Numbered from the stretch's first letter, positions 19,547-53,271 are shown. The stretch is DNA of 64,000 nt from Nodosilinea sp. P-1105 (GCF_012911975.1 NZ_SMDQ01000025.1:1-64000); one strand, 5' to 3'. The notes: generated by a model not told the origin, from the sequence alone. Program-made: numbers and translations.

Positions 19547-19823
19547 GTAAATCTACTTAACGTCTTTTGTCGTTAGACGAAGTAATTTTGCAGGTTCTCT
19601 GCTTAGTATCAAGCAATGGCTAAGATCCACCCAGGTTCCTGATGTATTGTTTCATTGATTTTAGGATGCATCGTAACTTCCATAACTGGGCAAACTATTG
19701 TTTGGCACGGCTACTCTAATGATGTGATGTCCATCCTAAAGCCAGCTCGATAGCTGTAGTTTTCCTTCACAGAAGACTTCAACTCTGGGCTTGGATACGG
19801 TTTACCTTCAATATAAAGTCTTT

Positions 19824-20363
19824 ATGAGTCGAGTTGATAAACTCATCCAGTCCTATAAGAGCTATATCTCACTGAAGTGGGAAGAGAACCTGTCGGGAAC
19901 CCAACGGGTGATCTTTGTGGTGTACGACAAGGCCGATGAGCGCACCCTGCGTAACAAAATTCCTGAATTTGAGCTGTGTACCAAACAGGCGGAGCATGGA
20001 TGGGCTCACCGGGACCTGACCAACGCCTTTCCGGAATGGATGGCCCAGGAAGACTATAAAGAGAGCTACTTCCAGACACCAGAAGACCTAGAGATGCTCA
20101 TGCCTGAGTTTCAGGAGCATCTGATTCAGCAGCTTGTCCAGATGTTGACGGCAGATACCGTAGATAGTAGTACGGTGGTTGCTCTATCGGGCCTGGGCGG
20201 GTTGTTTGGCTTTTTGCAAATCTCTGAGCTAGTTAGCAAACTGCAGTCCAACGTGCGGGGAAGGTTGCTGCTGTTTTTCCCTGGAGATTACGAGGACAAA
20301 AATTATCGCTTCTTAGATGCCCGTGACGGCTGGAACTACCTGGCCGTGCCAATTACGTCTTGA
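19824..20363 (+). CDS. brxB: BREX type 1 protein BrxB (DUF1788)
   Basis: I start at ATG 19824 ('MSRVDKLIQSYKSYI'), giving 179 aa, the usual BrxB beginning. Matches to the DUF1788 family include 'ERTLRNKIPEFELCTKQAEHGW', 'LTNAFPEWMA', and the C-terminal 'VRGRLLLFFPGDYEDKNYRFLDARDGWNY'. BrxB has no known catalytic residue and is thought to be a structural partner of BrxC and PglZ. The gene is separated from brxC by 17 bp. Confidence 0.9.
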   Translation: MSRVDKLIQSYKSYISLKWEENLSGTQRVIFVVYDKADERTLRNKIPEFELCTKQAEHGWAHRDLTNAFPEWMAQEDYKESYFQTPEDLEMLMPEFQEHLIQQLVQMLTADTVDSSTVVALSGLGGLFGFLQISELVSKLQSNVRGRLLLFFPGDYEDKNYRFLDARDGWNYLAVPITS

Positions 20364-20380
20364 AATAGAGAAAAGTCGCA

Positions 20381-23833: not shown

Positions 23834-23877
23834 AAACCCCTATCCTGATCCCTATGGTTCAACTACCCTATGCCTAG

Positions 23878-24024
23878 CTCTGCCCTCACCCCCTCAATCC
23901 CCCTCTCCCAGGGGGCGAGGAGGAAGTAGAAAACCCCTTCCACCTCCCCTCTACCTCCAAGAGAGAATCCGGGGGTAACAGCCCCCCCCTTCTCCCTTGT
24001 GCCTTCTACCTTCTGCCTTGCCCC
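23878..24024. repeat. Dispersed intergenic repeat tract between brxC and pglX
   Basis: The 190-bp gap contains CCCTCACCCCCTCAATCCCCCTCTCCCAGGGGG, whose CCCCCT/AGGGGG arms form a hairpin, followed by CTTGTGCCTTCTACCTTCTGCCTTG heptads. Both motifs are of the kind repeated in cyanobacterial genomes. The hairpin may weaken read-through into pglX. Confidence 0.55.
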
Positions 24025-27000: not shown

Positions 27001-27288
27001 GACAAACTTGCCCTCATCCTCGCAAGCGAAAAGCCCTACGATATCTTCGTCCGCTGGAAACCCCTCGAACAACAACCCATCGGCTGGCACCCCGACCTCA
27101 ACGACGGCGTCCGCCTCAACATCCGCCCCTTCATGAAAGCTGGGGTACTCCGCAAAAACCCCAACATCAAATGGAACAAAGACCGGGGCAAAAATCCCCC
27201 CGACTCCCCCTGGGGCGAAGAGCGCCTTAACGACATTCACCTTACCCTAGAAGAAAAGCGCCAAGCCCAGGAGGCCACCCAGCCATGA
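24025..27288 (+). CDS. pglX: BREX type 1 adenine-specific DNA methyltransferase PglX
   Basis: This 1087-aa enzyme methylates the BREX recognition site to mark self DNA. The SAM-binding motif is 'ILDPCCGSGHFL' (about residue 301), followed by 'LYGLEIDERCTQIAAFALAMA'. The catalytic motif is 'ATNVPFL' (about 486) instead of NPPY; that variant is, as I recall, found in a subgroup of this family. The region 255-290 is a Pro/Ser/Thr/His linker encoded by an 8-bp tandem repeat. DNA from roughly 25.23 to 26.63 kb is AT-rich, while both flanks are GC-rich, so the central and target-recognition part looks exchanged. The C-terminal 'KPYDIFVRWKPLEQQPIGWHPDLNDGVRLNIRPFM' is typical PglX. The stop overlaps ptuA (ATGA). 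Confidence 0.95.
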   Translation: MPTLHPDLRGTLENTVCDARDIAETGARAALEALAVGEAEPYKHLTADQRDFRNRLRARGRQLGDVRDERKGTQEITRLVRQCAYEYWHRMLFAKFLAENHLLMHPEGVAVSLQECEELAAEEGIDAWTLASRYAASMLPQIFRPDDPLLQLTFALEHKQALEKLLAELSSEVFTASDSLGWVYQFWQAKRKEEVNKSGNKIGADELPAVTQLFTEDYMVDFLLQNTLGAWWVGHHPTEPLPLEMPYLRFVETTPTPSNTSPTSPTHPPIHPSTHPPSHPTPASGTFPGWPKTAKELRILDPCCGSGHFLVAEFNLLVPMRMQEEGLSAQAACDAVLRENLYGLEIDERCTQIAAFALAMAAWTYPEAGGYRQLPKLNIACSGIAISAKREDWLALAGDDSRLRRGMSRLYFLFEGASTYGSLINPADQSDQPLLEATYTELLPILEQALVAERNKKNYWNEELGVAAQGIATAAKFLSTKYHLVATNVPFLYRGKQSEKLKNFCDAKHSEAKSDLSTVFVDRCLDFLYPDGSIALVTPQDWVFKPTYKDFRKFLLKEKEWKLVSFLGPAAFQDMNWWAAKTQLFVITNRQVSKEAVIHGIDITENRVTAEKPCLLKRESLAKVSQHGQLKNPDFRIILEAHERGIPLKRYAKTYQGIKTGDDPRFRRFFWELPFLDERWRYLQSTVEESVFYGGLESIVDWVDDGESIARLQGLSAWEKPGVAISQMRHLPCAIYFGEIFDSNTSPIIPDNPDHLPALWAFCRSEDFYDLIRQIDPALKVANSSFTKISFDLEHWQKVAQEEFPNGLPEPYSKDPTQWIFKGSVSSSTDPLQVAIARLLNFSWHKQADDDLDQLIDDDGIVCIPSIRGEQPASERLRNLLVKAYGKGWTSTKLRELLDPDGYGDKGLDDWLRNYFFEKHCKVFQSRPFIWHIWDGLKDGFAALVNYHKLDYKCLETLAYTYLGDWIREQQAAVKAGTSGADNKLLKAKQLQDKLALILASEKPYDIFVRWKPLEQQPIGWHPDLNDGVRLNIRPFMKAGVLRKNPNIKWNKDRGKNPPDSPWGEERLNDIHLTLEEKRQAQEATQP
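24821..24860 (+). repeat. 8-bp tandem repeat inside pglX
   Basis: CCCATCCA is repeated perfectly four times (24821-24852), followed by a degenerate fifth copy CCCTCCCA. The unit is not a multiple of three, so gain or loss of one copy shifts the frame ahead of the methyltransferase core at residue 301. It encodes a disordered His/Pro/Ser/Thr linker. Confidence 0.85.
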
Positions 27289-28610
27289 GAATTCAGAGCC
27301 TTCGCCTGCAGAATTTCCGGGGTTTTAAGGATTTGGAAATTGAGTTTCCAAAAGACAGCAATGTAGCTGTCTTCATCGGTATCAACGGCGCAGGGAAGTC
27401 TTCAGTGCTAGATGCGATTGGCCTACTGCTAGCGCAGTTTGTCATCAATCTATTGGGTGACACTGCTCGCAAAACCGAAAGACTCAGAAGAGCAGGCTTT
27501 TTGCTGACCGATAACGACATAAACGTCAAAGCTGACAAGTTGAGAATTCTCCAGGAATGGTCTTTTTTGCACAAAATCTGGGAATGGGAAGTCAGCAAAG
27601 AGCACAATAAAGGTGCTAAAGAGAAAAAAAGTTTTTCAATCTATTCCCAAGAAGTCATCAGTGCTCTGAATCAAGATGATAACTTCAACCTGCCAATCTT
27701 AGTTTACTATCATACCCATCGGCTATCGCCCACCATGGGGGCAACCACCAGTAAGGCAAAAAGCTATCGCTTTAGCCAGTTGTCTGCCTTTCAAAATTCT
27801 TTTGAGCGAAGCTTGGCCGGATTTGACGATTTTCTAAATTGGTTTCGAGCAGAAGAAGACTTAGAAAACCAAATCATCGTTAGAGAAGATAAAAGCTACC
27901 AAGATCCTAAATTAGAAGTCATTCGACATGCCATTAAGCATTTTTTCAACAGGCTTAACGCATCAAACTTGTTTGACGATCTGCGTATTGTCAGAGCTAG
28001 TAAAGGGGATGACTTTATATTTAAACCATCGGTTGTCAGTACGCTAGAAATTAAAAAAGGTCATGAAAGGCTCAGTATTGAGCAACTTTCTGATGGGGAA
28101 AGAAGTCTACTCTTGATTGTGGCTGACATCGCTAGAAGGCTGGCTATAGCCAACCCATCACTCCAAAACCACGACCAGATTCTTCGAGAGGGCAAGGGCA
28201 TTGTCTTAATCGATGAAGTCGATGCTCATTTGCATCCTCAATGGCAAAGGAATGTTATCCCTGCTTTGCGCGAGACTTTCAAAAGCTGTCAGTTTATTGT
28301 CACTACCCACTCCCCTCAAGTGCTGAGTAATATTGAAAGAGAGAGCATCTTCATCTTGGAAGATGGGAAGATTGTTGAAAACAATCCTCATTCCTATGGT
28401 CGGGATACAAATTCTATTCTCTATGAATTCATGGGAGTTGAAGAACGTCCCCAATGGATGAGAGCAAGGTTAGATCACTGTTTCCATTTAATTGACCAGG
28501 GGGAACTAGATAATGCTAAGGCAGCGATAGAAGATCTCAAGAAAACCATTGGAGAAAATGACACCGAAATTGTAAGAGCTAATACAATGCTTGCTTTTCT
28601 GTACGACTGA
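27285..28610 (+). CDS. ptuA: Septu-like AAA family ATPase (PtuA-type)
   Basis: This 441-aa SMC/RecF-like ATPase has 'LQNFRGFKDLEIEF' at the start and Walker A 'GINGAGKSS' near residue 35. The ABC-type signature is 'LSDGERSLL', Walker B is 'IVLIDEVDAHLHPQWQ' and the H-loop 'VTTHSPQVLSN' follows. The end, 'YGRDTNSILYEFMGVEERP', is characteristic of the ATPases paired with HNH proteins in Septu and in Septu-type retron effectors. PtuA proteins hold PtuB as a complex until infection. The gene overlaps pglX by ATGA and ptuB by TGATG, so it is built into the BREX transcript. It is more AT-rich than brxC. Confidence 0.85.
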   Translation: MRIQSLRLQNFRGFKDLEIEFPKDSNVAVFIGINGAGKSSVLDAIGLLLAQFVINLLGDTARKTERLRRAGFLLTDNDINVKADKLRILQEWSFLHKIWEWEVSKEHNKGAKEKKSFSIYSQEVISALNQDDNFNLPILVYYHTHRLSPTMGATTSKAKSYRFSQLSAFQNSFERSLAGFDDFLNWFRAEEDLENQIIVREDKSYQDPKLEVIRHAIKHFFNRLNASNLFDDLRIVRASKGDDFIFKPSVVSTLEIKKGHERLSIEQLSDGERSLLLIVADIARRLAIANPSLQNHDQILREGKGIVLIDEVDAHLHPQWQRNVIPALRETFKSCQFIVTTHSPQVLSNIERESIFILEDGKIVENNPHSYGRDTNSILYEFMGVEERPQWMRARLDHCFHLIDQGELDNAKAAIEDLKKTIGENDTEIVRANTMLAFLYD

Positions 28611-29311
28611 TGAAATATATTCAAAAAGGTAACGAGCCATCATCACTCGAAAAATATCGTAAGAGTCTTTCTCCCGGTACTCAAAAAGCTTATGATAATT
28701 TTCCTAATAAAGATGTCCTACGAGAAATTCTCTTAGAAGAACAGGGATACATTTGCTGCTACTGCATGAAAAGAATTTCCAACGAACTCGTCGAAGTAAA
28801 AGGGAAGTATCAATATAAAACTCGAATAGAGCATTGGGCACCACGCGAAATTTACAACGGGCAAAACGGAAAGCCAGATTTGAGACTGAATTATAGGAAT
28901 TTAATGGCAGCTTGCGATGGTAACCAGGGCCAACCAAAGCATTTATACTGCTGCGACAAAAGCAAGGGTAGCCAGGAAATTAAAATCAACCCAACTCAAT
29001 CTATCTGTGAAGACCAGTTTTACTTTAGCCCAACGGGGGAAATTACTTCCGAGGAAAAAAATATCAAACAAGAGCTTAATGATATTCTGAGACTCAACAT
29101 TCAGATTCATAGAAATAATCGAAAGGCAGCACTAAATAAAGCGCTTCAGCAACTACAGCCGTTCTCACCAAGTAGCCAACTTGCTCCAAGAATTCAGAAA
29201 GTAATTGACCAACTCAGCCGTCGTGACGAAATGGGTCAGCATGAGCCTTACTTTGCCTACGCCATCTATTTCCTACGCAAACGACTGGAAACGTTGAGAG
29301 AAAATTCATAA
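28610..29311 (+). CDS. ptuB: Septu-like HNH endonuclease (PtuB-type, TIGR02646-like)
   Basis: This 233-aa protein has an HNH nuclease core: 'GYICCYCMKRI' (zinc-binding Cys pair near residue 49), 'IEHWAPRE' (catalytic His), 'LNYRNLMAACDGN' (Asn) and a further 'LYCCDKSKG'. This pattern matches the HNH proteins that pair with AAA ATPases in Septu and Septu-retron systems. Its C-terminus is Gln-rich and helical ('AALNKALQQLQPFSPSSQL'). It shares one base with ptuA. No reverse transcriptase or msr/msd region was found near it, so this is the plain two-gene form. The predicted action is DNA or tRNA cleavage upon phage sensing. Confidence 0.85.
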   Translation: MKYIQKGNEPSSLEKYRKSLSPGTQKAYDNFPNKDVLREILLEEQGYICCYCMKRISNELVEVKGKYQYKTRIEHWAPREIYNGQNGKPDLRLNYRNLMAACDGNQGQPKHLYCCDKSKGSQEIKINPTQSICEDQFYFSPTGEITSEEKNIKQELNDILRLNIQIHRNNRKAALNKALQQLQPFSPSSQLAPRIQKVIDQLSRRDEMGQHEPYFAYAIYFLRKRLETLRENS

Positions 29312-29421
29312 TCGAACAGCACGATGCCCAACGAGCAGAGGCACTTCTTCAGTTAGCTCAACTACGCCAGGTTCCCCTGGAGCAAGTTCTAGCTGAGTTT
29401 TTGCCTGCCCATGCCGCCTAG
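29311..29421 (+). pseudogene. Remnant of an antitoxin-like gene
   Basis: Immediately after the ptuB stop, a start-less frame reads 'IEQHDAQRAEALLQLAQLRQ' and on to 'VLAEFLPAHAA' then TAG. The phrase 'LLQLAQLRxVxLEQVLxEF' recalls small cyanobacterial antitoxin-like proteins. Only the last 36 codons are left. It suggests that a deletion or insertion joined foreign DNA at the end of ptuB. Confidence 0.35.
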
Positions 29422-29515
29422 CTCAGGATCGGTAGTCCCCAGCAAGCCCTTCGTGCCCGAATAATCAAAAGCTATCCCCTTAAAATAGAAACATCTTTCT
29501 ACCGAAGTCTTTACT

Positions 29516-30142
29516 ATGGCCTACAGCAACTTTAGCCTCAGCAAAGTCAAAGCAGACTTCAACCTCACCATCAACGAAAGAACTGACTTGTTCTCTCAAG
29601 TCCCACCCATCGCCCCTAGTGACTACCTCAAGCTCACCCTCAAAGAGCATCTGCCCCTGGTCAATGCCATCAATACCGAAAAAGCCAGGTCAGAGCTGGT
29701 GATCATGCCCGTGCTGATAGAAGTCCGGCGACACCTCAACTACCAGGTCAGTCTATTCTCAGGATCCGAGTTCAACGTAGACGCTGCCAAGGGGCTAGAA
29801 GGTCGGTGCGACTTTATTCTCACCCGCTCCCCCGAGCAGTACTACATCAGTCGCCCGGTCATGACCATCGTGGAAGCCAAAAACGAAAACATTAAAGCTG
29901 GTCTGGGCCAGTGCATCGCTACCATGCTGGCAGCCTACCTGTTCAATCAGCAAGAAGGCACCTCCGAAGACATCATTTATGGGGCGGTTACCACCGGTAC
30001 CGACTGGAAATTTCTAAAGCTGGTCGAACAAATGGTCTACATCGACCGTGATGACTACTACATTAAAGAAATCGACCAGATTCTCGGCATTCTAGCCTCT
30101 ACCCTGCAGCCCGAACCTGCCCTGGCTGGGGGTAACCTTTAG
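29516..30142 (+). CDS. Putative PD-(D/E)XK-like protein of unknown function
   Basis: This 208-aa protein is of a type common in cyanobacteria. The core 'GRCDFILTRSP...RPVMTIVEAKNENIKAGLGQC' gives an Asp followed after some 25 residues by a Glu-Ala-Lys, as in PD-(D/E)XK nucleases. This is a pattern-based guess. The protein has no signal or membrane segment. It is AAxAGT-spaced and GC-rich, unlike ptuAB, and lies between the gene remnant and the DUF4058 gene. Such proteins are usually solitary elsewhere. Its place inside the BREX operon could mean a nuclease function in defence, or passive hitchhiking. Confidence 0.6.
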   Translation: MAYSNFSLSKVKADFNLTINERTDLFSQVPPIAPSDYLKLTLKEHLPLVNAINTEKARSELVIMPVLIEVRRHLNYQVSLFSGSEFNVDAAKGLEGRCDFILTRSPEQYYISRPVMTIVEAKNENIKAGLGQCIATMLAAYLFNQQEGTSEDIIYGAVTTGTDWKFLKLVEQMVYIDRDDYYIKEIDQILGILASTLQPEPALAGGNL

Positions 30143-30172
30143 CCTTGGTCTAATCTATCCCTTGTGATAACC

Positions 30173-30919
30173 ATGACTCCCGTCTTCCCCGGCATGAACC
30201 CCTATCTAGAAAACCCCGACATCTGGACGGAAGTTCACGCCTGGTTAATCGTGCAGCTTGCCCGCAACCTCAATCCCTTACTAAAGCCCAAGTACCGGGC
30301 CGCCGTTGAACAGCGAGTCTACACCGACTCTCTACTGGTCGGCATCCCCGATGTGTCCGTCTTCCAAAGCCAGCAAAGTAAGGGCCAGGCCGTTGCCACC
30401 AGCACCCTGAGCAAGCCGATCAAAGTCAACGTCCCCATGCCCGAGGAAGTCAAAGAAAGCTACCTGGAGATCCGGCAGATCGGCACTGGCAAAGTCGTTA
30501 CCATGATCGAAGTCCTCTCGCCCAAAAACAAACGCCCCGGCGAAGGCCGAAACCAATACACCGCCAAGCGCTACAAAGTTTTAGAAAGTCTCAGCCATCT
30601 GGTAGAAATTGATCTCCTTCGTTCCGGCGAACCCCTGCCTATGTCCGGCGGTGTCCCATCTGACTACCGCATCCTTATCAGCCGGGCCAATAGCCGCCCC
30701 GAAGCCGAACTCTACCCCTTTAGCCTGCGAGAACCCATTCCCGTTTTTCCCCTCCCCCTCCAGTCTGGCGATGAAGAACCCACAATTGATCTAAATCAGG
30801 TGTTGCAGGATATCTATGAACAAGCATCATTAGATCTGGTGATCGACTACGGCCAACAGCCCATCCCCCCGCTCACCGACCCTGATTTTCAGTGGATTCA
30901 GTCTCTTCCGACCGCATGA
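30173..30919 (+). CDS. DUF4058 family protein
   Basis: I start at ATG 30173 ('MTPVFPGMNPYLENPDIWTEVHAW'), a hallmark of DUF4058, instead of the GTG three codons earlier. It has 248 aa, soluble, with 'VTMIEVLSPKNKRPGEGR' in the middle. 'IEVLSPKNK' has an E-x-L/K arrangement that recalls a PD-(D/E)XK core, but no activity is known. The family is common in cyanobacteria and chiefly of unknown function. Its stop overlaps the pglZ start (ATGA), implying coupled translation with a core BREX gene. Confidence 0.82.
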   Translation: MTPVFPGMNPYLENPDIWTEVHAWLIVQLARNLNPLLKPKYRAAVEQRVYTDSLLVGIPDVSVFQSQQSKGQAVATSTLSKPIKVNVPMPEEVKESYLEIRQIGTGKVVTMIEVLSPKNKRPGEGRNQYTAKRYKVLESLSHLVEIDLLRSGEPLPMSGGVPSDYRILISRANSRPEAELYPFSLREPIPVFPLPLQSGDEEPTIDLNQVLQDIYEQASLDLVIDYGQQPIPPLTDPDFQWIQSLPTA

Positions 30920-33264
30920 GTACAGCCAGTTCCCCTGCCAAACCGTTTTCCCCCACCATGACTGTCCTTGAGGCGCTCATCCAGGCCCTCAATGGTATGT
31001 CTACTCATAATCCCAACGCCGAAGCCTCCCCGGCAGTTGTTTTATGGACCGACGAAAAAAAACAGTGGGAAAAACTCATGCCGCGACTGCGATCGCAACT
31101 TCCCCACCTGCTGACGTTTGGGCCGTACAACTCTGAAACCAAAACCGGGCCTGCCATTTGGCTTAAGTGCATGATTGCTGGCACCCTGCCAGAAGCGGAT
31201 TGGGCTGCCGCCGTACCCATTCTTTACCTGCCAGGGATCAGCCGTCAGCAGCTACGGGCGGTAGAAAACTGCCCCTGGGAACTTCAACCCCTGGCTGAGC
31301 TTCAATACCGGGGTGTGTTCTGGAGCCAACCCAACAGCCGCGACTGGACGATTCTCGCTTTCCTCAAGTCTAAAGAAGGTTTGGGGCTTGATGTTGCCCA
31401 AGACCAGGCCACCCTTAAAGCCATGCAGGGAGCCCTCAACCTCCTAGCCGAAGCTCCCATTAGCGCACTCCAGCGCAAAAAGTTAGAAGCTGAAGACTTT
31501 AATCAGCTACTCACTCCTGACCCGGTGCGAGATGTATTGCTCTGGCTGAATGACCCTGACAGTATCAAATCCAGTTGGGCCGGAGAGCGTTGGAACGCTT
31601 TCTGTTCCGTCTGCCAGGCCAAATACACATTCAACCCCGACCAGGAAGGAGCCATCACCGGAGCCGAAAAACTGGGCAACAGAGAAGAGAACTGGAATGC
31701 CGTCTGGGATCGCTTTGCCGAAGCTCCCGGTGCTTATCGCAGCATTCCTAACCTGCTCAAGCAGGCGGCACCCGCAACCCCCAACATGTTTACTGACCGC
31801 TCGACCTGGCCCAATGTGAATGAAGGAGCAGAAGCAGACCTCCGTCAAAGACTCCTCAATCTGAAGCAGTCAACCGCTCCCGAAGCCATTGAGCAACTGC
31901 GCCATTTAGAAGCGGAGCATGGTCCACGACGAGCATGGGTCTGGGCTGAACTGGGGGAAGCTCCCCTCGCCAAGGCTCTGGAGCATCTGATCACCCTGGC
32001 GAACGGGGTTGAAACCTCTTTGGGTGGCCATACACCCCAGGCCATGGTGGAGCAATACATCGGCAGCGGCTGGCAGGCTGATGCTGCCGTCCTAAAAGCG
32101 ATTGCCTGTGTAGAGCGGGATAGCGATTGTCGAGCTGTCTTCAGCGCTATCCGAACCATCTATCAGCCCTGGCTAGAGCAAACCGCCGAACACCTGCAAA
32201 ACCTGATTCGGGAGCAGAGCTATCCCCTGGGCTCTGCTGCCGCCCTCCAGGCTCCTAATCCCAGCAAGGGCGAATGCCTGCTCTTTGCTGATGGGCTCCG
32301 CTTCGACATTGCTCAAATGCTGAAGCAGGAACTTGAAGAGCAAGGGCTGACAGTTGCAGAAGATTGGCAGTGGGTACCCCTACCGACAGTAACGGCAACC
32401 TCTAAACCGGCAGTCTCTCCCGTTGCCCATCTTATCCACGGGTCTGCTGATGGGTCTAACTTCCGGCCCACCCTTAAAGAAGACAGTAAGGACCTCACCA
32501 CCGACCGCTTCGCCAAATTGCTAGAAAGCCAGGAAATCCAGCAGCTTAAGAGCAACGATACCGGCGATCCTAAGGGCATCGCCTGGACCGAATCTGGAGA
32601 ACTCGACAAGTATGGCCATAGTAATGGCTTCAAGCTAGCCTACGAAGTTCAACGACAAATCCGCAGCCTCTCAATACAGATACAGGATTTGCTCGATGCC
32701 GGATGGCAAAAAGTTCAGGTCATCACCGATCACGGCTGGCTGCTTATGCCAGAAGGGCTGCCCAAGCAAGACTTTCCCGGCCATCTGGCAGAAACCCGTT
32801 GGGGACGCTGTGCCGCCCTTAAAGAGACCTCTGCCACCGATATTGACACTCAGCCCTGGTTCTGGTCAGGGGATGTTCGCATTGCCCTGCCCACAGGCAT
32901 TCGGTGTTTCAGAGCCGGTCTTGAGTACGCCCATGGCGGCATTAGCCTGCAGGAATGTGTGACGCCTGTCTTGACGGTCACGGGGCAGACAGTAGTACAA
33001 ATGTCTAATATTAGTGAATTTAAGTGGCTGGGGCTGCGCTGCCGTGTCACTGTAGAAAATGGTTCACCCGATATGACCGTAGACATGCGCACAAAGCCTG
33101 CCGATGCTTCGACTTCCCTGGCCGCAGGTGGGAAACCTATTTCTGGAGGAAAAGCATCCCTTGCGATCGCAGATGACAGTACTGAGGGGGACCCGGCTGT
33201 TATCGTCTTACTGGATGCTCAGGGTAACGTGGTAGCCAAACAAGTCACCATGATTGGGGGTTAA
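30916..33264 (+). CDS. pglZ: BREX type 1 phosphatase-like protein PglZ
   Basis: I start at ATG 30916, which overlaps the DUF4058 stop; this gives 782 aa. An alternative start is ATG 30958 ('MTVLEALIQAL'). PglZ is a member of the alkaline phosphatase superfamily and the signature protein of BREX. The metal-binding stretch is 'CLLFADGLRFDIAQML' (about residue 455) with 'LPTVTATSKPAVSPVAHLI' downstream, and 'VITDHGWLLMPEGLPK' (about 602) supplies the second Asp-His site. The C-terminal 'YAHGGISLQECVTPVLTV' is also typical. Zinc-dependent nuclease activity has been reported for relatives. It is followed 9 bp later by brxL. Confidence 0.95.
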   Translation: MSTASSPAKPFSPTMTVLEALIQALNGMSTHNPNAEASPAVVLWTDEKKQWEKLMPRLRSQLPHLLTFGPYNSETKTGPAIWLKCMIAGTLPEADWAAAVPILYLPGISRQQLRAVENCPWELQPLAELQYRGVFWSQPNSRDWTILAFLKSKEGLGLDVAQDQATLKAMQGALNLLAEAPISALQRKKLEAEDFNQLLTPDPVRDVLLWLNDPDSIKSSWAGERWNAFCSVCQAKYTFNPDQEGAITGAEKLGNREENWNAVWDRFAEAPGAYRSIPNLLKQAAPATPNMFTDRSTWPNVNEGAEADLRQRLLNLKQSTAPEAIEQLRHLEAEHGPRRAWVWAELGEAPLAKALEHLITLANGVETSLGGHTPQAMVEQYIGSGWQADAAVLKAIACVERDSDCRAVFSAIRTIYQPWLEQTAEHLQNLIREQSYPLGSAAALQAPNPSKGECLLFADGLRFDIAQMLKQELEEQGLTVAEDWQWVPLPTVTATSKPAVSPVAHLIHGSADGSNFRPTLKEDSKDLTTDRFAKLLESQEIQQLKSNDTGDPKGIAWTESGELDKYGHSNGFKLAYEVQRQIRSLSIQIQDLLDAGWQKVQVITDHGWLLMPEGLPKQDFPGHLAETRWGRCAALKETSATDIDTQPWFWSGDVRIALPTGIRCFRAGLEYAHGGISLQECVTPVLTVTGQTVVQMSNISEFKWLGLRCRVTVENGSPDMTVDMRTKPADASTSLAAGGKPISGGKASLAIADDSTEGDPAVIVLLDAQGNVVAKQVTMIGG

Positions 33265-33273
33265 ACATAAGGC

Positions 33274-35325
33274 ATGGGGATTACACTAGACACCCTCGAT
33301 GAACTAGCGGCGAAAACCTTTGAAGGCTACATCGTCCGCAAAGACCTGGTGCGTACCTTTAGCCGACAGTACCCCGTACCGACCTACGTGGTGGAGTTTT
33401 TGCTGGGCCGCTACTGTGCCAGCACAGACCCAGAAGAAATTGAAGAGGGACTCCAAATCGTTAGCCGCCAACTGGCTAACCGTACTGTCAAAGCTGGAGA
33501 AGAAGAGTTGTTCAAATCCCGTGCTCGCGAACAGGGTTCCGTCAAAATCATCGATGTCATCTCCGCTCGTCTGGATGCCAAGACCGATTCCTACCTGGTG
33601 GAACTTCCCAGCTTGCGCCTGAGAGATGTGCGCATCGATAGCGAACTGGTTCACCAACACGAGCGCATGCTCACCGGGGGCTTCTACGCCGAAGTCGAAT
33701 TAGGTTACGACGCCGTTATCGCCCAGGAGAACAACGGTCGCCCCTTTGGGATCGAGAGCTTGAGGGAAATTCAGCTTTCCAATCGGGATGTTTTAGGTGC
33801 CCTGGCCCGAGGTCGTGAACTCTTTACCACCGAAGAATGGAAAGATTTTCTGATCCGCAGTGTGGGGCTGGAACCGACCCACCTGGCAGAGCGGGCCAAG
33901 GATGTCATCCTCATGCGCATGGTGCCCTTTGTCGAACGGAACTTCAATGCGGTAGAAATTGGCCCTAGAGGAACAGGTAAGAGCCATCTTTTTCAGCAGG
34001 TGTCGCCCTACTCCCATCTGGTATCTGGTGGTAAAGCCACCGTTGCCCGCATGTTCGTCAACAACGCCACCGGTCAGCGAGGGCTGGTCTGTCAGTACGA
34101 CGTCGTCTGTTTTGATGAGGTCTCTGGTATCTCCTTTGACCAGAAAGACGGGGTCAACATCATGAAGGGCTACATGGAATCAGGAGAGTTCAGTCGGGGG
34201 AAAGAAAGCATTCGAGCTGACGGCAGCATCGTCATGGTAGGTAACTTTGATGTCGATGTAGAGCACCAGCAGCGGGTGGGGCACATGTTCTCCCCCATGC
34301 CCCCCGAAATGCGAGACGATACCGCCTTCATGGATCGCATCCACGCCTACTTTCCAGGATGGGATGTTCCTAAAATGTCGAAGGAGTTGCTGACCGAGCA
34401 CTTCGGGCTAGTGAGTGATTTCCTCTCCGAGTGCTTTAGCCAACTGCGCCAGCAGAGCCGCCTGGCCCTACTTCAGGGGCGTGTCTTTTTCGGCGGTGCC
34501 CTCAGCGGCAGGGACACCAATGCCGTCAACAAGTTAATCAGCGGCCTCTTAAAGCTGCTTTACCCCTCCTCAGAGGCAACGATTCCTGACGAAGATGTGG
34601 AGTGGGCGACCCGGTTGGCGCTGGAATCTCGCCGTCGAGTCAAAGAACAGCAAAAGCGGGTGGGGGCTGCCGAGTTTCGCAATACCCACTTCAGCTACCA
34701 GATGGGGGAAGAAGGGGTAGAGAAGTTTGTCGTTACTCCTGAACTCCAGAGCGAGAACAGCATTGGCAGTGACCCCCTAGATCCCGGCCAGGTATGGAGC
34801 ATCAGCCCAGGCAGCATGGACGAGAATCCGGGGCTTTATCGCATTGAAGTAACCGAAGGTCCTGGATCTGGCGTCAAAATTCTGAACCGCCCCACGCCTC
34901 AAGCCTTCTCAGAGAGCGTCCGCTACGCCGAGCAAAACTTATACACCAGAGCCAAAGAACTGGTGGGGGATCGCGAACCCCGCTCCCACGAATTTTCTGT
35001 CCAATTGCGTGCCTTTGATACCTCCCGCAGCGGTAGCCAGCTTGGCCTGGCAGTACTCATTGCCCTATGTAGCGGTCTGCTCAAGAGGAATATCCGAGGT
35101 GGCCTCATTATTGTCGGTGGCTTAAACCTGGGGGGCTCTATTGAGCCGGTCTACAATGCCGTCAGCATCGCCGAGCTTGCTGTGGAAAAAGGCGCAACAG
35201 CCCTGCTCATGCCGGTTTCAGCTCGCAAGCAGCTCTATGACCTTTCAGATGATATGGCCACGAAGGTCGATATCCAATTTTATTCCGACGGAAAAGATGC
35301 TTTCTTTAAAGCTATTGCTGAATAA
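33274..35325 (+). CDS. brxL: BREX type 1 protein BrxL (Lon-like AAA+)
   Basis: This 683-aa protein has a Lon-like architecture: an N-terminal domain, an AAA+ core with Walker A 'GPRGTGKSH' (about residue 230) and Walker B 'VVCFDEVSGISFDQKDG', then a C-terminal Lon-type fold ('SRSGSQLGLAVLIALCSGLLKRN', 'IIVGGLNLGGSIEPVYNAVSIAELAVEKGATALLMP'). The Lys expected in a functional Lon Ser-Lys dyad is not evident ('GSIEPVYN'), in line with BrxL acting as a DNA-binding ring and not a protease. It completes the type 1 order. Ends 90 bp before the fusion gene. Confidence 0.95.
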   Translation: MGITLDTLDELAAKTFEGYIVRKDLVRTFSRQYPVPTYVVEFLLGRYCASTDPEEIEEGLQIVSRQLANRTVKAGEEELFKSRAREQGSVKIIDVISARLDAKTDSYLVELPSLRLRDVRIDSELVHQHERMLTGGFYAEVELGYDAVIAQENNGRPFGIESLREIQLSNRDVLGALARGRELFTTEEWKDFLIRSVGLEPTHLAERAKDVILMRMVPFVERNFNAVEIGPRGTGKSHLFQQVSPYSHLVSGGKATVARMFVNNATGQRGLVCQYDVVCFDEVSGISFDQKDGVNIMKGYMESGEFSRGKESIRADGSIVMVGNFDVDVEHQQRVGHMFSPMPPEMRDDTAFMDRIHAYFPGWDVPKMSKELLTEHFGLVSDFLSECFSQLRQQSRLALLQGRVFFGGALSGRDTNAVNKLISGLLKLLYPSSEATIPDEDVEWATRLALESRRRVKEQQKRVGAAEFRNTHFSYQMGEEGVEKFVVTPELQSENSIGSDPLDPGQVWSISPGSMDENPGLYRIEVTEGPGSGVKILNRPTPQAFSESVRYAEQNLYTRAKELVGDREPRSHEFSVQLRAFDTSRSGSQLGLAVLIALCSGLLKRNIRGGLIIVGGLNLGGSIEPVYNAVSIAELAVEKGATALLMPVSARKQLYDLSDDMATKVDIQFYSDGKDAFFKAIAE

Positions 35326-35414: not shown

Positions 35415-38400
35415 ATGGAATATCAGATAGGGCTGCTACGACTTGGGCCAGATACCGAGGAAGGCAAATCCTACATCATCCCTACCCAACTCCGCAGAAC
35501 GAGAGTAGGGCAGACTGCAAATTTTGAGTTAGCCCATCTGTCTGAGAGCAGTCTCTCAACAACTGGCAATCGCAGTAGCCACCTGTACTGGAATTTTAAA
35601 GCGGACTTGCTGTCTAAACAGAAGGAGCTTAAGAATGATCCTTCATCGTGGTCAATGCTGGCCGTAAAGGAAGGCGCTGAGCCCACTGTTACTCAAGATA
35701 CCTGGATTTCTCCTTTTGAGGCTGGTGAGCACTACATTGCCGATCTTTGTGCCAATGTAGAACAAAAGCTGATGGAGGTATTAGGACCTGATGTCAAGCT
35801 CAGCTTTTATTTCACGGCTCCCGGTTACGAGCAAACAGAATCACAGACATATAAAAATAATATAAAAAGCATTCTGAGAAAAACTCTCAAGCACGAAATC
35901 CTCAAGCGATCAAACTTCCCTCAGCTAACGCAGGGAGATAGTTTCCTCTATGAACAGTATGGAGTCTACTATTACTTCACTCAGTGTGAAAGAAAAATAG
36001 ATCTCGGTGTCCCGAAGGCCAACTATCTAATCATAGATATTGGCGGTAGTACTACAGATATTGCGGTTGTTCACCTGACTAAAACGGGTGAAGTCGCTCG
36101 TGTTTTTCCTATTTATGAAAGCTTTCAATATGGAGGCACGGATTATGATCGGTCGATCATTAGTGAGGTTATGCCTAATGACGCTCCCTACTTCTCTTAC
36201 GATGAAGAAAGAAAGAGTAAGATTTTAAGGCTTGTCGAAAAAGCAAAAGTTTCAATTTTAAGCAGTGATGATACTCAGATATCTAAATCCTTGAAAACTA
36301 GCGGAGAGACTTATCGCTTCTCCAGAGATGTTTTAGACAAGGCTTTTGATAAGGACTGGAACTGGAAAATCAAGAAAAATATACTCAAGGTTCTTGCGAT
36401 CGCAGAAAACGATCAAAGAATCAACTATACTGGTGAGAAATTTGCAATAGACGGAATTCTTCTAGCAGGTGGTACCAGCAAGCTCCAACGCTTCAGAGAC
36501 AATCTGAGCAACGATCCCGAGTTACAAAGATATTTTTCAAAAAACCATACCGTCAGCTATGCGACTAAGGCAGATCCCAGTAGTCTAGCTTCCTTAGGAT
36601 TAGGTATATCAATATTAGAAAGGACGTTGCGGGATAAGGAAGAAACCAAGAATGACCTTCCAATGGCTGAAACAGTTTGCCTAAATATCAGAGATGACAA
36701 GAATAACGTTCTTAACATTCGAAGACTTACAAGCCGGAATGGAACTCCTAAAAATCTACTTTTTACAGTTGAGCAGGTTCTGAAGAGCGCACCAGAAAAT
36801 AATAATGGTCGTGTTCATTTTCCTCGAGATTTGTTCAGCTCAGCAGAAATAGATCAATTACCTGAACAGTTAAGACTAGAGTTTACGACAGACTGTAATC
36901 CTCGTCCTCAAACATTAAGTTTAAATCTTTCAGAACCCACTGGCTTAGGCCGAAATATCCCTGAGGGATTATATTTTAGTACAGCAGTTGACAAACCAAA
37001 CGTTAGGTCGTCAGATTTAAGTCCTTCCAAGTTGAGAGTGGATCCCTATTTCTATAGGTTTCTACCTTTATCGAAAGATTATCGTCGATGCGATAATAAA
37101 GGACGTCCATCAAAAATTGATATTTCCCTTGCACCGGTCAACATTAATCTTGAAAAAGATCGGGCCTATGTGTGTATAGACTTTGGAATGAACAATACCT
37201 CGGTAGCTGTGTTTGCTCCCAGCTATTCTCTAAGTGAGGAACATTTCCAAGTGCTGAAAGTCGTACCAAGTACAGGATTAGCTGAAGAACCTCATGAGCT
37301 AAATATCGTTATCGAGAATCGAACTTATCAGGTGATTAAAGAAGTAGCGTATAATCCATCAACTAAACTCCCGATTCATTTAGTTGAACGCGAAAAGGAA
37401 TATTTCCTCGCTACGGAAAATGACAATGAAAAGTCTCGCTACAAAATAATTCCCATTAGCGATCCTCTAAGTCCAGACAAGATAAACCCACAACAAGCCA
37501 TAGCCCTGGTCACTCTACCCCGCTTCCTAGGAGTCCATCCCCATACAGGAGCTGCAGTAGGTATTAACTACAATGTCGATGGACCTGTCCTAATTCATGG
37601 GGACCTCGATACAATCCTGCTACCAGATTTAGAAACAGACTTTGGTTCACAGGTTGAAGATGTAATCCCGTGGATTCACCTCGATACAATCCTGCTACCA
37701 AGTTTAGAAACCGCCTTAGAAATGACCCTTGAAGATGCCCTCGAGCAGCTACCGCCCTACCCCTCGGCATCTATTCTACCCCGGTTCCTCGGTGTTCATC
37801 CCCAAACGGGGGCACCTGTAGAGATCATTGAGCGCCCTAACGGTCCCACCTTAGCTCATGGTAGTTTTGATCGTGACTATGTAAGACTACCGGACTGGAA
37901 TCAAGTTTGTGAAATAACACTCGAAGAGGCTTTAGAGTTGTTGCCCTTGTACGAACCCATAGATTCACCAGAAGATCTAGACGTCTCGGTTTCTCCTAAA
38001 ACCGAGACAACACTTCATCTGTCTGAAGATCTGAAGGAAAGCCTGGAATCACTCACAAACGCACTTAAATCACAGGCTAACCAGAACTCTGAAATTCTCG
38101 AAGCACTACTCCAGGTTGCTAAACAAGCTCCTAAAAAAAATCTTCAGAAAGCCGAAGCTGAGGAATCACAGCAAATTCAGCCTGCCCAACAACAGGAAAT
38201 TCATGTAGAGCTAAGGCCCTACGAAACTGGTACTGAAATCAGCTTTAGAGGCTTTGAAGAATTTGTCTCTGATCAGGGCTTTAGCTATGAACCCTCTGTA
38301 CTTAGACAGGTTTGGACCCACACTCAAAACAAACATTCTCGCCTTGCTATCCTGGCAGGTCCACCTGGGTCTGGAAAGACCCAACTAGTCTCGCTTCTCG

Positions 38401-39248
38401 CAGAATATTTCAACCGAGATTTGACCTATAAGAGCTATCGCGAAGAGTTTCACTTGCTGGAACCAGTTTTACCTTCTTGGTTCTCCTCTGAGAACCTGTT
38501 GGGTTTCTACAGCCAGATCACTGAGCAATTTCACCCAACTAATTTCTTCAAGTTTCTAAAAAGAGCTGAGCATCACCACATTGCAGACATAAATCGATTG
38601 TTCTTCGTCTGTCTAGATGAATTCAATCTGGCGCAGCCTGAGCAGTATCTCGCTAAGGTGCTCTCTGTTATGGAATCCGAAAGCGCTGAGATGACAGTTT
38701 GCCAGGAAACAGGCCAGAGCGTCTTAATCCCATCTAACCTTAAGCTCTTCGCAACTATCAATACTGACTCAGCTTCTAAAGCATTGAGCCCCAAGGTCCT
38801 TGACCGTTCAGTTTTGATTAGGATAACTCCTTCTAAGGAAAGAGTTGTAGACTTTTCTAAAAATAAAAGCTCTCCCGTGCCGTTTGCCAACCAGGTGCTG
38901 GCCCAATTTCATGCCTATTTGGATGTTCTTTATGACCTTGGCTCAGCATCAGGAGCAGCATTTGGATTTAGAACAATTGATACAGCAATTGCTCACCTCG
39001 AAGCCCATCCCTATGTAGAGCTAGAAGGTTCTAATACAACAGAATCAGTCATAGAAGAAGTGATTGATGAGATCATATCTTCTATCTTCCTGTCAAAACT
39101 ACCAGGCTACAACCGTTTTGAAGGTGAGGAGAGCTACAGAAAAACCCTTGTCAAAACCATGGAAAAGTTTCAGCAAGGTCACTTGAAGCAATCGACAAAA
39201 ATAATTGAGAAAATCAAAGCTGGTTATCCTGGCCAATCCGCCTTTTAA
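35415..39248 (+). CDS. Fusion protein: actin/Hsp70-like ATPase, topoisomerase-type repeats and McrB-like AAA+ domain
   Basis: This 1277-aa multidomain protein has no name I know. Residues 200-360 carry an actin/Hsp70 phosphate-2 motif 'IIDIGGSTTDIAVV' and adenosine motif 'GILLAGGTSKLQRF'. A phosphate-1 motif 'YVCIDFGMNNTSVAVF' comes later, near 585, so the ATPase motif order looks permuted. Two repeats near 697 and 785 ('LPRFLGVHPxTGA') with 'ITLEEALELL' match the C-terminal repeats of topoisomerase I. A helical Gln-rich linker follows. The C-terminal AAA+ has Walker A 'AGPPGSGKTQL' (about 981), Walker B 'VCLDEFNLA' and 'INTDSASKALSPKVLDRS', as in McrB. DNA is AT-rich. The 611-aa gene follows after 14 bp. 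It probably senses modified DNA or a phage complex. Confidence 0.85.
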   Translation: MEYQIGLLRLGPDTEEGKSYIIPTQLRRTRVGQTANFELAHLSESSLSTTGNRSSHLYWNFKADLLSKQKELKNDPSSWSMLAVKEGAEPTVTQDTWISPFEAGEHYIADLCANVEQKLMEVLGPDVKLSFYFTAPGYEQTESQTYKNNIKSILRKTLKHEILKRSNFPQLTQGDSFLYEQYGVYYYFTQCERKIDLGVPKANYLIIDIGGSTTDIAVVHLTKTGEVARVFPIYESFQYGGTDYDRSIISEVMPNDAPYFSYDEERKSKILRLVEKAKVSILSSDDTQISKSLKTSGETYRFSRDVLDKAFDKDWNWKIKKNILKVLAIAENDQRINYTGEKFAIDGILLAGGTSKLQRFRDNLSNDPELQRYFSKNHTVSYATKADPSSLASLGLGISILERTLRDKEETKNDLPMAETVCLNIRDDKNNVLNIRRLTSRNGTPKNLLFTVEQVLKSAPENNNGRVHFPRDLFSSAEIDQLPEQLRLEFTTDCNPRPQTLSLNLSEPTGLGRNIPEGLYFSTAVDKPNVRSSDLSPSKLRVDPYFYRFLPLSKDYRRCDNKGRPSKIDISLAPVNINLEKDRAYVCIDFGMNNTSVAVFAPSYSLSEEHFQVLKVVPSTGLAEEPHELNIVIENRTYQVIKEVAYNPSTKLPIHLVEREKEYFLATENDNEKSRYKIIPISDPLSPDKINPQQAIALVTLPRFLGVHPHTGAAVGINYNVDGPVLIHGDLDTILLPDLETDFGSQVEDVIPWIHLDTILLPSLETALEMTLEDALEQLPPYPSASILPRFLGVHPQTGAPVEIIERPNGPTLAHGSFDRDYVRLPDWNQVCEITLEEALELLPLYEPIDSPEDLDVSVSPKTETTLHLSEDLKESLESLTNALKSQANQNSEILEALLQVAKQAPKKNLQKAEAEESQQIQPAQQQEIHVELRPYETGTEISFRGFEEFVSDQGFSYEPSVLRQVWTHTQNKHSRLAILAGPPGSGKTQLVSLLAEYFNRDLTYKSYREEFHLLEPVLPSWFSSENLLGFYSQITEQFHPTNFFKFLKRAEHHHIADINRLFFVCLDEFNLAQPEQYLAKVLSVMESESAEMTVCQETGQSVLIPSNLKLFATINTDSASKALSPKVLDRSVLIRITPSKERVVDFSKNKSSPVPFANQVLAQFHAYLDVLYDLGSASGAAFGFRTIDTAIAHLEAHPYVELEGSNTTESVIEEVIDEIISSIFLSKLPGYNRFEGEESYRKTLVKTMEKFQQGHLKQSTKIIEKIKAGYPGQSAF
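37603..37725 (+). repeat. 75-bp in-frame direct duplication inside the fusion gene
   Basis: The string CCTCGATACAATCCTGCTACCA occurs at about 37604 and again 75 bp later, at about 37679. Surrounding sequence stays similar ('LDTILLPDLET' and 'LDTILLPSLET'). The period equals 25 codons, so the frame is kept. The first topoisomerase-type repeat is lengthened by one such unit. The identity of the core suggests a recent event. Confidence 0.8.
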
Positions 39249-39262
39249 TTTTCTTCATTCCT

Positions 39263-41098
39263 ATGTCTGTCTTGACTTTGAAGTACGGAAAAATTGAAAT
39301 ATATCTTAGAGATGGCAATGGGCGATTTGTGCCTATTGACCTGCAAGTTTCAAACGAAATAAAAACCAAAAATATCTTTGCTGGAAATAAGAAGAGCATG
39401 GATTTCTCGGTTAGGTTACCTGGCTACTCAGGTGATTTACCACAATATCTTTACCTATACTTAGGAACTGATCCTATCCGGCGATGGCGGAACGACTATT
39501 CTATCTCATTAAAACTGGGATATGATTTCTCCAATCATCCTTATTGGGCCGCAGAGACAGAGGATATTACTAGAATCAGTCGAGAGTTTTGGTGTGCTGC
39601 AAAAGCTGAAATTACTCTCTGCGACGATGATCAAACTCCTCTGCTAACCGAAACTGAGGAATTAGCTTCAACCGTTATCGAACTTGGCTATGATGCTTGG
39701 TACGAGAACGTCTATGAGGGAGTGAAGCAAGGTTTAGAGTCGATTAATCAAGAAGCTGATATTACTTCTCCCTTTGAGCAGGAAGTTGAAGTAGGCGCTT
39801 CTAGCGATGAAGAGTCACCCAGTTCTGAAATCCTTGCTGTATATTGGCGAATAAAGCCTTACTTGGACGATCTAGGCAGGGCAATAGCCAAAATCGTTGC
39901 TAATCCAGCTCAACGAAACTATGCACGACATAGTTTTTACAGTTTGCAAGGAGCACAGTCTAATTCGCTATCGAGTGGGCACATAAGTTGTGGTTTTGTT
40001 ACAGTACAAAGTTATCAAACTATAGGTGGGCGAGCGGTTCCAGATAACTACATCTCAACGCAAATAGATGCAACTCACAATATTGAAGAAAATTATATTT
40101 CCCTTCAATGCATAAAAAGAGTTTTGGGTTATTTAGAAGATATCTCAGATGAGATTAAACAATATATTGAAGATTTAAAAAAAATTAAATCTGGTATATA
40201 TAGTGGAGCCCACAAAAATAAGCTAGAGGCTGATATCAGGCAGCATCACAACGAGTTGAAAGACATAAAAGAGCAAGTTGATAAGTTTGGCTACTATATC
40301 AAGTGTTTTTCTTTCCTAGACCGAGATTATCGCCCTCCCAGTCTAAATTTCAGTTCAGAATTACTATACTATGACGATCGCTACTCCACAGTCTGGAAGA
40401 TATTAGCAAGGATAGATGGGATATTAAACTATATAAACATTTCAGACGAAGTGATTAAGTTTCAGGTTGCGCCTTTTCAAGAGGTATATGAAAGGTGGTG
40501 CCTACTAAAAATTGTTTCTGCCCTAGAAGAAATGGGCTTTAGGAAGACATCATCTGCTTCTAAATCTCCGCTGTATGGGAATCCAAGGTTTAACTCCCAA
40601 TATTGTGAACTAGAACACCCCCAAGATCCGGGTTTGAATTTAAAGGTTTACTTTGAGAAGAAGCATCAATTCATTGACGGTGCTTGGCCTGAAAATTCTT
40701 ATGGGTTCTGGCAACCTGCCTATGAAGGAGAACCAAAGAGTGAGTGGAAGCATACCCCAGATATTTCACTGGAATTTTTTAGAGATCTGGGCCACCCAAA
40801 CATAGTTACTTTTGACCCCACCTTGGGAGGTAAATCAATTTGGCCAGATAAGTATAAATATAAGAAGACAATTCGTGCAAACACGTCTCAGGGATATGAT
40901 TATATTGTCAAAGCTGCTTGGGCCATTGCTCCTGGCCAGGCAAAGCATAGCATTTCCCCATTCTACAGTGATGAAGATGCTGGCTTTTCTGAAGGAACCA
41001 TTTTCTTAAATCACACTCGAGAAAGTCAGGAAGCGCTTTACGTTACGCTCAGCAAGATCCTGATGAGTAATGGTTTATTGTCTGCTTCTGTTGAATAA
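39263..41098 (+). CDS. McrC/DUF2357-like partner protein
   Basis: This 611-aa protein is the second gene of the pair. Its N-terminal half is beta-rich, and the middle is a coiled coil ('IEDLKKIKSG...ADIRQHHNELKDIKEQVDKF'). The phrase 'EVYERWCLLKIVSALEEMGF' followed by 'KHTPDISLEFF' and 'VTFDPTL' matches the order of DUF2357/McrC-type proteins, where 'YExWxxLKL', 'PDIxLE' and 'DAKY' mark a PD-(D/E)XK nuclease. Here the 'DAKY' position reads 'DPTL', and the nearest Lys-rich string is 'DKYKYKKTI'. The nuclease may therefore be altered or inactive. It would be the effector to the McrB-like AAA+ domain. Confidence 0.65.
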   Translation: MSVLTLKYGKIEIYLRDGNGRFVPIDLQVSNEIKTKNIFAGNKKSMDFSVRLPGYSGDLPQYLYLYLGTDPIRRWRNDYSISLKLGYDFSNHPYWAAETEDITRISREFWCAAKAEITLCDDDQTPLLTETEELASTVIELGYDAWYENVYEGVKQGLESINQEADITSPFEQEVEVGASSDEESPSSEILAVYWRIKPYLDDLGRAIAKIVANPAQRNYARHSFYSLQGAQSNSLSSGHISCGFVTVQSYQTIGGRAVPDNYISTQIDATHNIEENYISLQCIKRVLGYLEDISDEIKQYIEDLKKIKSGIYSGAHKNKLEADIRQHHNELKDIKEQVDKFGYYIKCFSFLDRDYRPPSLNFSSELLYYDDRYSTVWKILARIDGILNYINISDEVIKFQVAPFQEVYERWCLLKIVSALEEMGFRKTSSASKSPLYGNPRFNSQYCELEHPQDPGLNLKVYFEKKHQFIDGAWPENSYGFWQPAYEGEPKSEWKHTPDISLEFFRDLGHPNIVTFDPTLGGKSIWPDKYKYKKTIRANTSQGYDYIVKAAWAIAPGQAKHSISPFYSDEDAGFSEGTIFLNHTRESQEALYVTLSKILMSNGLLSASVE

Positions 41099-49085: not shown

Positions 49086-49087
49086 CC

Positions 49088-50206: not shown

Positions 50207-50209
50207 GTG

Positions 50210-52539: not shown

Positions 52540-52550
52540 GGGGCAGATCA

Positions 52551-53267: not shown

Positions 53268-53271
53268 ACCC

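What the first reader, a model, noticed from the sequence alone, without database searches (positions are those of the whole stretch)
35415..41098. Candidate new system: actin/Hsp70-topoisomerase-repeat-McrB fusion with a McrC-like partner, next to BREX
A single 1277-aa protein joins actin-like ATPase motifs, topoisomerase-I C-terminal-type repeats and a McrB-like AAA+ domain, followed 14 bp later by a DUF2357/McrC-like gene. McrBC-type systems are known for cleaving modified DNA. I know of no described system with this domain set. The topoisomerase-type repeats could bind DNA, and the Hsp70-like part could be a nucleotide-gated sensor or chaperone for the AAA+ ring. Function is inferred from motifs and position only.
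Basis: partly seen in the sequence, partly recalled or inferred. Interest (0 to 1): 0.92.

Follow-up and report, generated by a model that had tools for sequence, protein, structure and literature searches.

The report
Chaperone-fused, nuclease-dead McrBC pair beside BREX
Next to a BREX phage-defence operon on what may be a mobile element in a cyanobacterium sits a two-gene relative of the McrBC restriction machine, with a motor fused to a chaperone-like ATPase and pieces resembling topoisomerase I and a partner whose DNA-cutting site looks broken; it is an unusual variant of a family already noticed but never tested.

Summary
The two ORFs and domains are real. A (35415-39248, 1277 aa) has an Hsp70-like ATPase, two topoisomerase-I C-terminal repeats, a helical linker and a McrB-type AAA+ domain. 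B (39263-41098, 611 aa) is a remote McrC homologue. New here: (i) the topoisomerase repeats, absent from the one full-length homologue; (ii) the Hsp70-like domain appears circularly permuted, its phosphate-1 hairpin (584-602) lying after the phosphate-2 and adenosine motifs; (iii) all three B homologues carry D-P-T where McrC nucleases have D-x-K, so B is probably nuclease-dead; (iv) the context recurs: directly after brxL in two genomes, inside an ARMADA-like cluster in the third. It is rare (3 of 390 cyanobacterial genomes in one sample). Most likely it is a GTP-driven recognition/remodelling add-on to methyltransferase-based defence, not a modified-DNA endonuclease. Function is untested, and both AlphaFold models failed (pLDDT under 38), so the permutation rests on sequence profiles.

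The parts
35415..39248 (+). Gene A, 1277 aa: permuted Hsp70-like NBD + topoisomerase-I C-terminal repeats + helical linker + NxD McrB-type AAA+ domain
35415..36644 (+). A residues 1-410: Hsp70-like NBD from the region after phosphate-1 through the adenosine motif
   Evidence: hhalign A 95-362 with DnaK 83-322, E 4.7e-10; relaxed alignment runs from A residue 2 at DnaK residue 13
36021..36080 (+). Phosphate-2 motif NYLIIDIGGSTTDIAVVHLT (aa 203-222), conserved in three homologues
37164..37220 (+). Phosphate-1 hairpin AYVCIDFGMNNTSVAVFAP (aa 584-602), displaced to the C-terminal side of the module
   Evidence: hhalign with DnaK residues 3-21, E 0.0016; phosphate-1 profile alone E 3e-5, decoy proteins E 0.2-0.8
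37512..37739 (+). Topoisomerase-I C-terminal-type repeat 1 (about aa 700-775)
   Evidence: BLAST to host TopA C-terminus
37782..37979 (+). Topoisomerase-I C-terminal-type repeat 2 (about aa 790-855), PF13368 E 4e-7; about 49% identical to host TopA over 57 aa
38016..38219 (+). Probable helical/coiled-coil linker before the AAA+ domain (aa 868-935); start of the PADLOC PDC-M26A match
   Evidence: and the sequence; no coiled-coil predictor was run
38235..39245 (+). McrB-like AAA+ domain: Walker A GPPGSGKT (982-989), Walker B CLDEFN (1066-1071), NxD motif N1116-T-D1118
39263..41098 (+). Gene B, 611 aa: McrC-like partner (DUF2357-type helical region with long helices, then PD-(D/E)xK-like domain)
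40814..40822 (+). D518-P-T520, replacing the catalytic D-x-K of PD-(D/E)xK; conserved in 3 of 3 homologues
33274..35325 (+). brxL (context): stops 89 bp before A, same strand, no terminator-like site in the gap
18722..33264 (+). BREX operon (context): brxA 18722, brxB 19791, brxC 20381, pglX 24025, ptuA/ptuB-like 27285/28610, PD-(D/E)xK 29516, DUF4058 30164, pglZ-B 30892

Best explanation
A and B are a two-gene, defence-associated derivative of McrBC from the NxD branch of McrB GTPases. A is the GTPase ring subunit; instead of a modified-DNA-reading domain it carries an Hsp70-like nucleotide-binding module that appears circularly permuted and, in this genome, two topoisomerase-I-type repeats that could bind DNA. 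B is the McrC-like stalk that would stimulate the ring, but its nuclease centre is probably inactive. Proposed action: the Hsp70-like module binds an infection-specific target in a nucleotide-gated way, the NxD ring powered by B remodels or translocates it, and damage comes from blocking or remodelling, or from a nuclease supplied in trans by the host defence locus. Shown by sequence: domain content, NxD motif, D-P-T, recurrent defence context. Inferred: ring assembly, target, antiphage role, mode of action.
For: Domains. NxD: A has N-T-D; wherever the motif could be located in the nearest AAA relatives from cyanobacteria and plasmids it was also NxD. A is about 42% and B 37% identical to the P. 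tenue pair; A and B are 42% and 44% identical to the readable parts in G609. B-McrC homology E 1.8e-7, with D-P-T aligned to D-P-K. Context: pglZ-brxL-A in the window and in G609; in P. tenue the pair lies between a type IIG/DrmMI-like methyltransferase and a DruE/MrfA-type helicase, with a PDC-S11/Shedu-like gene after it, matching the cyanobacterial ARMADA gene order described in PMC12458937. Base composition (A 42.8%, B 39.8%, BREX 52.7% GC) fits an added module. Hsp70-McrB fusions are a known NxD group.
Against: No experiment. Only three homologues, one split across two contigs and missing its middle. Both structure models failed. The Hsp70 substrate-binding part was not recognised. No HEPN or other dedicated nuclease is fixed next to the pair. 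PADLOC and NCBIfam do not assign the pair to a named system.
Confidence: 0.6

Rival explanations
1. A and B are a working type IV restriction system that cleaves modified DNA, complementing BREX as BrxU does; B uses an unusual but active PD-(D/E)xK centre.
For: McrBC-type pair with intact Walker motifs; BREX and type IV restriction are known to be paired (PMC8565348, title listed); conserved lysines lie nearby in B.
Against: Catalytic Lys is Thr in 3 of 3 homologues; no EVE/DUF3578-type modified-base reader; NxD instead of NxxD.
Confidence: 0.15
2. RNA-directed system like the CoCoNuTs: the Hsp70-like domain recruits RNA or ribosomes and an RNase in trans acts as effector.
For: Shared NxD McrB and Hsp70-like unit; Bell et al. 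argue these Hsp70 units bind RNA.
Against: No HEPN, CSD, SmpB-like, YTH or CnuH gene found in the loci examined; the topoisomerase repeats and the methyltransferase partners point more to DNA.
Confidence: 0.2
3. Accessory regulator or assembly factor of BREX/ARMADA (chaperone for BrxL/PglX complexes) rather than an independent defence module.
For: Directly downstream of brxL on the same strand with no terminator-like site between them.
Against: The other brxL loci read lack it among the first five downstream ORFs, and the P. tenue copy sits in a genome where no close brxL was found.
Confidence: 0.15
4. The hairpin at 584-602 is the remnant of a second actin-like domain, not the displaced phosphate-1 of the first (no circular permutation).
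For: AlphaFold gave no usable model; phosphate-1 and phosphate-2 hairpins resemble one another; in A the 80 residues after the hairpin are of unknown fold.
Against: The N-terminus aligns from just after phosphate-1; in the homologue the hairpin is followed only by low-complexity linker.
Confidence: 0.35

Closest known systems
Hsp70-McrB fusions, deepest branch of the NxD McrB GTPases (Bell et al. 2024, PMC11090510)
   Same: Hsp70-like NBD fused N-terminally to an NxD McrB GTPase, with a DUF2357 McrC-like partner
CoCoNuT systems types I-III
   Same: NxD GTPase, helical linker, McrC with an inactivated PD-(D/E)xK, association with BREX and other restriction systems
   Different: No HEPN, CnuH helicase, CSD or SmpB-like gene; Hsp70 is on the McrB side, not the McrC side as in type III-A
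Canonical McrBC (E. coli)
   Same: AAA+ ring protein plus DUF2357 partner; Walker A/B intact
   Different: NxD not NxxD, no modified-base-binding domain, nuclease lysine lost
PADLOC candidate PDC-M26 (A/B)
   Same: A matches PDC-M26A over the linker and start of the AAA+ domain (E 2e-26)
   Different: Match covers only 199 of 724 profile positions; B hits PDC-M26B only at E 0.005
ARMADA / DISARM-like loci (PMC12458937)
   Same: The P. tenue copy lies in a locus with ARMADA-like gene content and order (SNF2 helicase, methyltransferase, YprA-type helicase)
   Different: A and B are extra genes not described as ARMADA components in the passages read

Membership tests
NxD Hsp70-McrB group (Bell 2024) | McrB-type AAA+ with NxD instead of NxxD | tested here: met
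   N1116-T-D1118 in A, same in P. tenue homologue; relatives in which the motif could be located are also NxD
NxD Hsp70-McrB group (Bell 2024) | Hsp70-like NBD fused to the GTPase | tested here: met
   Pfam HSP70 E 7e-5; hhalign E 4.7e-10
NxD Hsp70-McrB group (Bell 2024) | Hsp70-like substrate-binding domain | tested here: inconclusive
   Residues 410-580 match nothing; model unusable
NxD Hsp70-McrB group (Bell 2024) | Placement on the deepest NxD branch of the GTPase tree | not testable with these tools
McrBC type IV restriction | NxxD GTPase motif | tested here: not met
   NxD
McrBC type IV restriction | McrC partner with DUF2357 | tested here: met
   hhalign E 1.8e-7; homologue Pfam DUF2357 E 6.5e-5, marginally below cut-off
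McrBC type IV restriction | Intact PD-(D/E)xK catalytic motif | tested here: not met
   D-P-T in B and both homologues
McrBC type IV restriction | GTP-dependent cleavage of modified DNA | not testable with these tools
   needs biochemistry
CoCoNuT (types I-III) | HEPN or other dedicated nuclease gene adjacent | tested here: inconclusive
   No HEPN found in the ORFs scanned; P. tenue has a PDC-S11/Shedu-like gene after B; the window has a PD-(D/E)xK gene and a PtuB-like gene inside BREX
CoCoNuT (types II-III) | CnuH UPF1-like helicase gene | tested here: not met
   none among the neighbouring genes scanned
PADLOC PDC-M26 | Both A and B profiles matched over most of their length | tested here: not met
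   A partial match, B marginal
BREX core | Gene present in BREX loci generally | tested here: not met
   No A or B match among the first five downstream ORFs of 15 other brxL loci read (some on short contigs)

The most novel reading that the evidence does not exclude
A circularly permuted Hsp70-type ATPase has been fused to a McrB ring and armed with topoisomerase-derived DNA-binding repeats, giving a nuclease-free defence motor that recognises phage replication intermediates and is passed between methyltransferase-based systems (BREX, ARMADA) as a plug-in.
Probability: 0.3. Interest if true: 0.8.

Novelty: new variant of a known kind. Interest (0 to 1): 0.52.

Why it matters
No NxD McrB GTPase had been characterised when Bell et al. 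wrote, and their Hsp70-fused branch is known only from sequence. This pair offers a small two-gene example with a recurrent link to BREX and an ARMADA-like locus and a probably dead nuclease. It makes a direct question testable: can a McrBC-type ring defend without cutting, and what does its chaperone-like domain recognise? If the permutation is confirmed it would be an unusual rearrangement of the Hsp70/actin fold; my one literature search on this found no relevant report.

Tried and rejected
AlphaFold2 of A 1-660 and of B with two-row alignments gave unusable models (pLDDT 37.6 and 36.1), so no fold search was run. Viral contigs hold no relative by the two scans. The one genome-contig scan chose N-terminal patterns and found only P. 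tenue. tblastn on plasmids found McrB AAA+ domains only for A and nothing for B. PDB profile searches for B and for the AAA+ domain gave no convincing hit (E. coli McrB only at E 0.46). Searching other phyla with the genome search was not possible. "PDC-M26" is not named in any held paper. The idea that the topoisomerase repeats are a core part of the system was dropped because the P. tenue homologue lacks them; in G609 that stretch is missing from the assembly. The idea that A/B belongs to the BREX core was dropped. A DnaK-only phosphate-1 HMM was weak for A alone (72 of 2000 shuffles reached its score) though strong for the homologue; the profile-profile result carries the claim.

Full report
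Observation. The two ORFs are present as described. A, 1277 aa, begins 89 bp after the brxL stop on the same strand, with no terminator-like site in the gap; B follows 14 bp later. Pfam gives HSP70 (203-362), Toprim_C_rpt (795-843) and AAA_5 (979-1131) in A, each above its gathering score. B has no convincing Pfam match.

Surroundings. Upstream is a BREX set: brxA, brxB, brxC, pglX, a PtuA/PtuB-like pair, a PD-(D/E)xK gene, a DUF4058 gene, pglZ type B and brxL. Downstream lie a 210-aa membrane/coiled-coil-like protein, an opposite-strand ORF, and from 45 kb on a cluster with TrbI-like and TraG/TraD-like conjugation proteins, so the whole may sit on a mobile element; that was not proven. A (42.8% GC) and B (39.8%) are poorer in G+C than the BREX genes (52.7%) and the window (54.6%); the topoisomerase-repeat stretch is 48.8%.

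Homologues. In 390 genomes of the same class (Cyanobacteria) three hold A, the window's genome included, and three hold B convincingly. (1) Phormidium tenue FACHB-1052 (L028/L006; G046 in the genome set): A homologue 1138 aa, about 42% identical; B homologue 37%. (2) G609, another family: the N-terminal 551 aa of A and the C-terminal 310 aa of B lie at the ends of two contigs. The A+B pair is rare.

Context of homologues. In G609 the order is pglZ, brxL, A, with A starting 54 bp after brxL. Window and G609 BrxL are 86% identical, PglZ 58%, A 42%, B 44%. Fifteen other cyanobacterial brxL loci showed no match to A or B among the first five downstream ORFs, some on short contigs, so the pair is optional cargo. 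In P. tenue the pair lies between a type IIG/DrmMI-like methyltransferase and a DruE/MrfA-type helicase, with a DrmD/BrxH-like SNF2 helicase upstream and a PDC-S11/Shedu-like gene directly after B. This matches the gene order reported for ARMADA type I in many cyanobacteria (PMC12458937). Thus three of three occurrences lie in methyltransferase-based defence loci (for G609 the methyltransferase gene itself is off the contig and is inferred from pglZ-brxL).

GTPase branch. McrB-like GTPases fall into NxxD, NxD and NxxxD groups (PMC11090510). A has FATINTDSASK: N-T-D, the NxD form, as in the P. tenue homologue. Where the motif could be located in A's nearest AAA+ relatives from cyanobacterial genomes and plasmids it was NxD, usually followed by E. 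The same paper states that the deepest NxD branch is typified by an Hsp70-like NBD/SBD fused to the McrB GTPase.

Hsp70-like part. A profile of three sequences aligned with cyanobacterial DnaK-type NBDs gives A 95-362 with DnaK 83-322 (E 4.7e-10), and as second, non-collinear alignment A 584-602 with DnaK 3-21 (E 0.0016). With a relaxed threshold the first alignment starts at A residue 2 with DnaK residue 13. The phosphate-1 stretch alone matches A 584-602 at E 3e-5; B, McrC and AAA profiles as decoys give 0.2-0.8. So the phosphate-1 hairpin, normally the first element, comes last: a circular permutation is the simplest reading. The weaker points are that a DnaK-only HMM scores A itself poorly, that phosphate-1 and phosphate-2 hairpins are similar in kind, and that AlphaFold2 with two rows failed. 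I put the permutation at about 0.6.

Topoisomerase repeats. Two repeats (about 700-775 and 790-855) resemble the host's own TopA C-terminus (about 49% over 57 aa; 44% over 77 aa). PF13368 repeats are DNA-binding in mycobacterial topoisomerase I (PMC9369019). The P. tenue homologue has a low-complexity linker instead and the stretch is missing in G609. They look like a recent or variable insertion that may add DNA binding; that is inference.

B. Profile comparison with five McrC-type partners aligns B 255-520 with the DUF2357 end and the PD-(D/E)xK region (E 1.8e-7). The alignment ends with B's FDPT on the McrC FDPK. All three B proteins carry TPD(I)xLEF followed by DPTLG. The catalytic lysine is thus replaced by threonine throughout, and B is probably not a nuclease unless another residue substitutes. 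This parallels the inactivated PD-(D/E)xK domains in many NxD systems. Those systems are said always to have another nuclease nearby; here candidates exist only loosely (PD-(D/E)xK and PtuB-like genes inside BREX in the window, the Shedu-like gene in P. tenue).

Mechanism. Shown: domains, intact Walker A/B, NxD motif, conserved phosphate motifs, conserved D-P-T, recurrent defence context. Inferred: A forms a McrB-type ring stimulated by B; the Hsp70-like domain is the recognition element in place of a modified-base reader; the repeats add DNA binding; the motor remodels or blocks its target, or hands it to a nuclease of the neighbouring system. Rivals are an active modified-DNA restriction enzyme, an RNA-targeting CoCoNuT-like system, or a BREX assembly factor.

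Verdict. Real, and a new variant of a known but uncharacterised kind. Interest 0.52.

Noticed in passing
window 45298-59363: Cluster of conjugation-type genes (TrbI-like 50953-52539, TraG/TraD coupling protein 55634-57379, a 993-aa ATPase 45298-48279) next to the BREX island, suggesting an integrative conjugative element or plasmid.
   Followed up: partly
window 27285-29311: PtuA/PtuB (Septu / retron-Ec78-effector-type) pair embedded between pglX and pglZ of the BREX operon.
   Followed up: partly
window 29516-30919: PD-(D/E)xK gene and a DUF4058 gene, also embedded within the BREX operon.
   Followed up: no
L028 15362-16519: 385-aa PDC-S11/Shedu-like protein with a possible EVK nuclease motif directly after the B homologue; it could supply a nuclease in trans.
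   Followed up: partly
L034 4813-9176: Nostoc sp. HK-01 plasmid: reverse transcriptase fused to an NxD McrB-type AAA+ domain, followed by a McrC-like gene with an intact D-A-K motif.
   Followed up: no
L032 343-11684: Deinococcus sp. QL22 plasmid: EVE-domain NxD McrB and McrC pair followed by hypothetical, tubulin-like and MotA/TolQ/ExbB-type genes.
   Followed up: no
L029 1-10443: Skermanella plasmid: NxD McrB and a nuclease-domain protein directly after an RNA-repair operon (Hen1, Pnkp, RtcB-like, prfH).
   Followed up: no
window 39225-39245: A and its P. tenue homologue end in the same tail, (Y/F)PGQSAF; the conserved extreme C-terminus may be a docking site.
   Followed up: no
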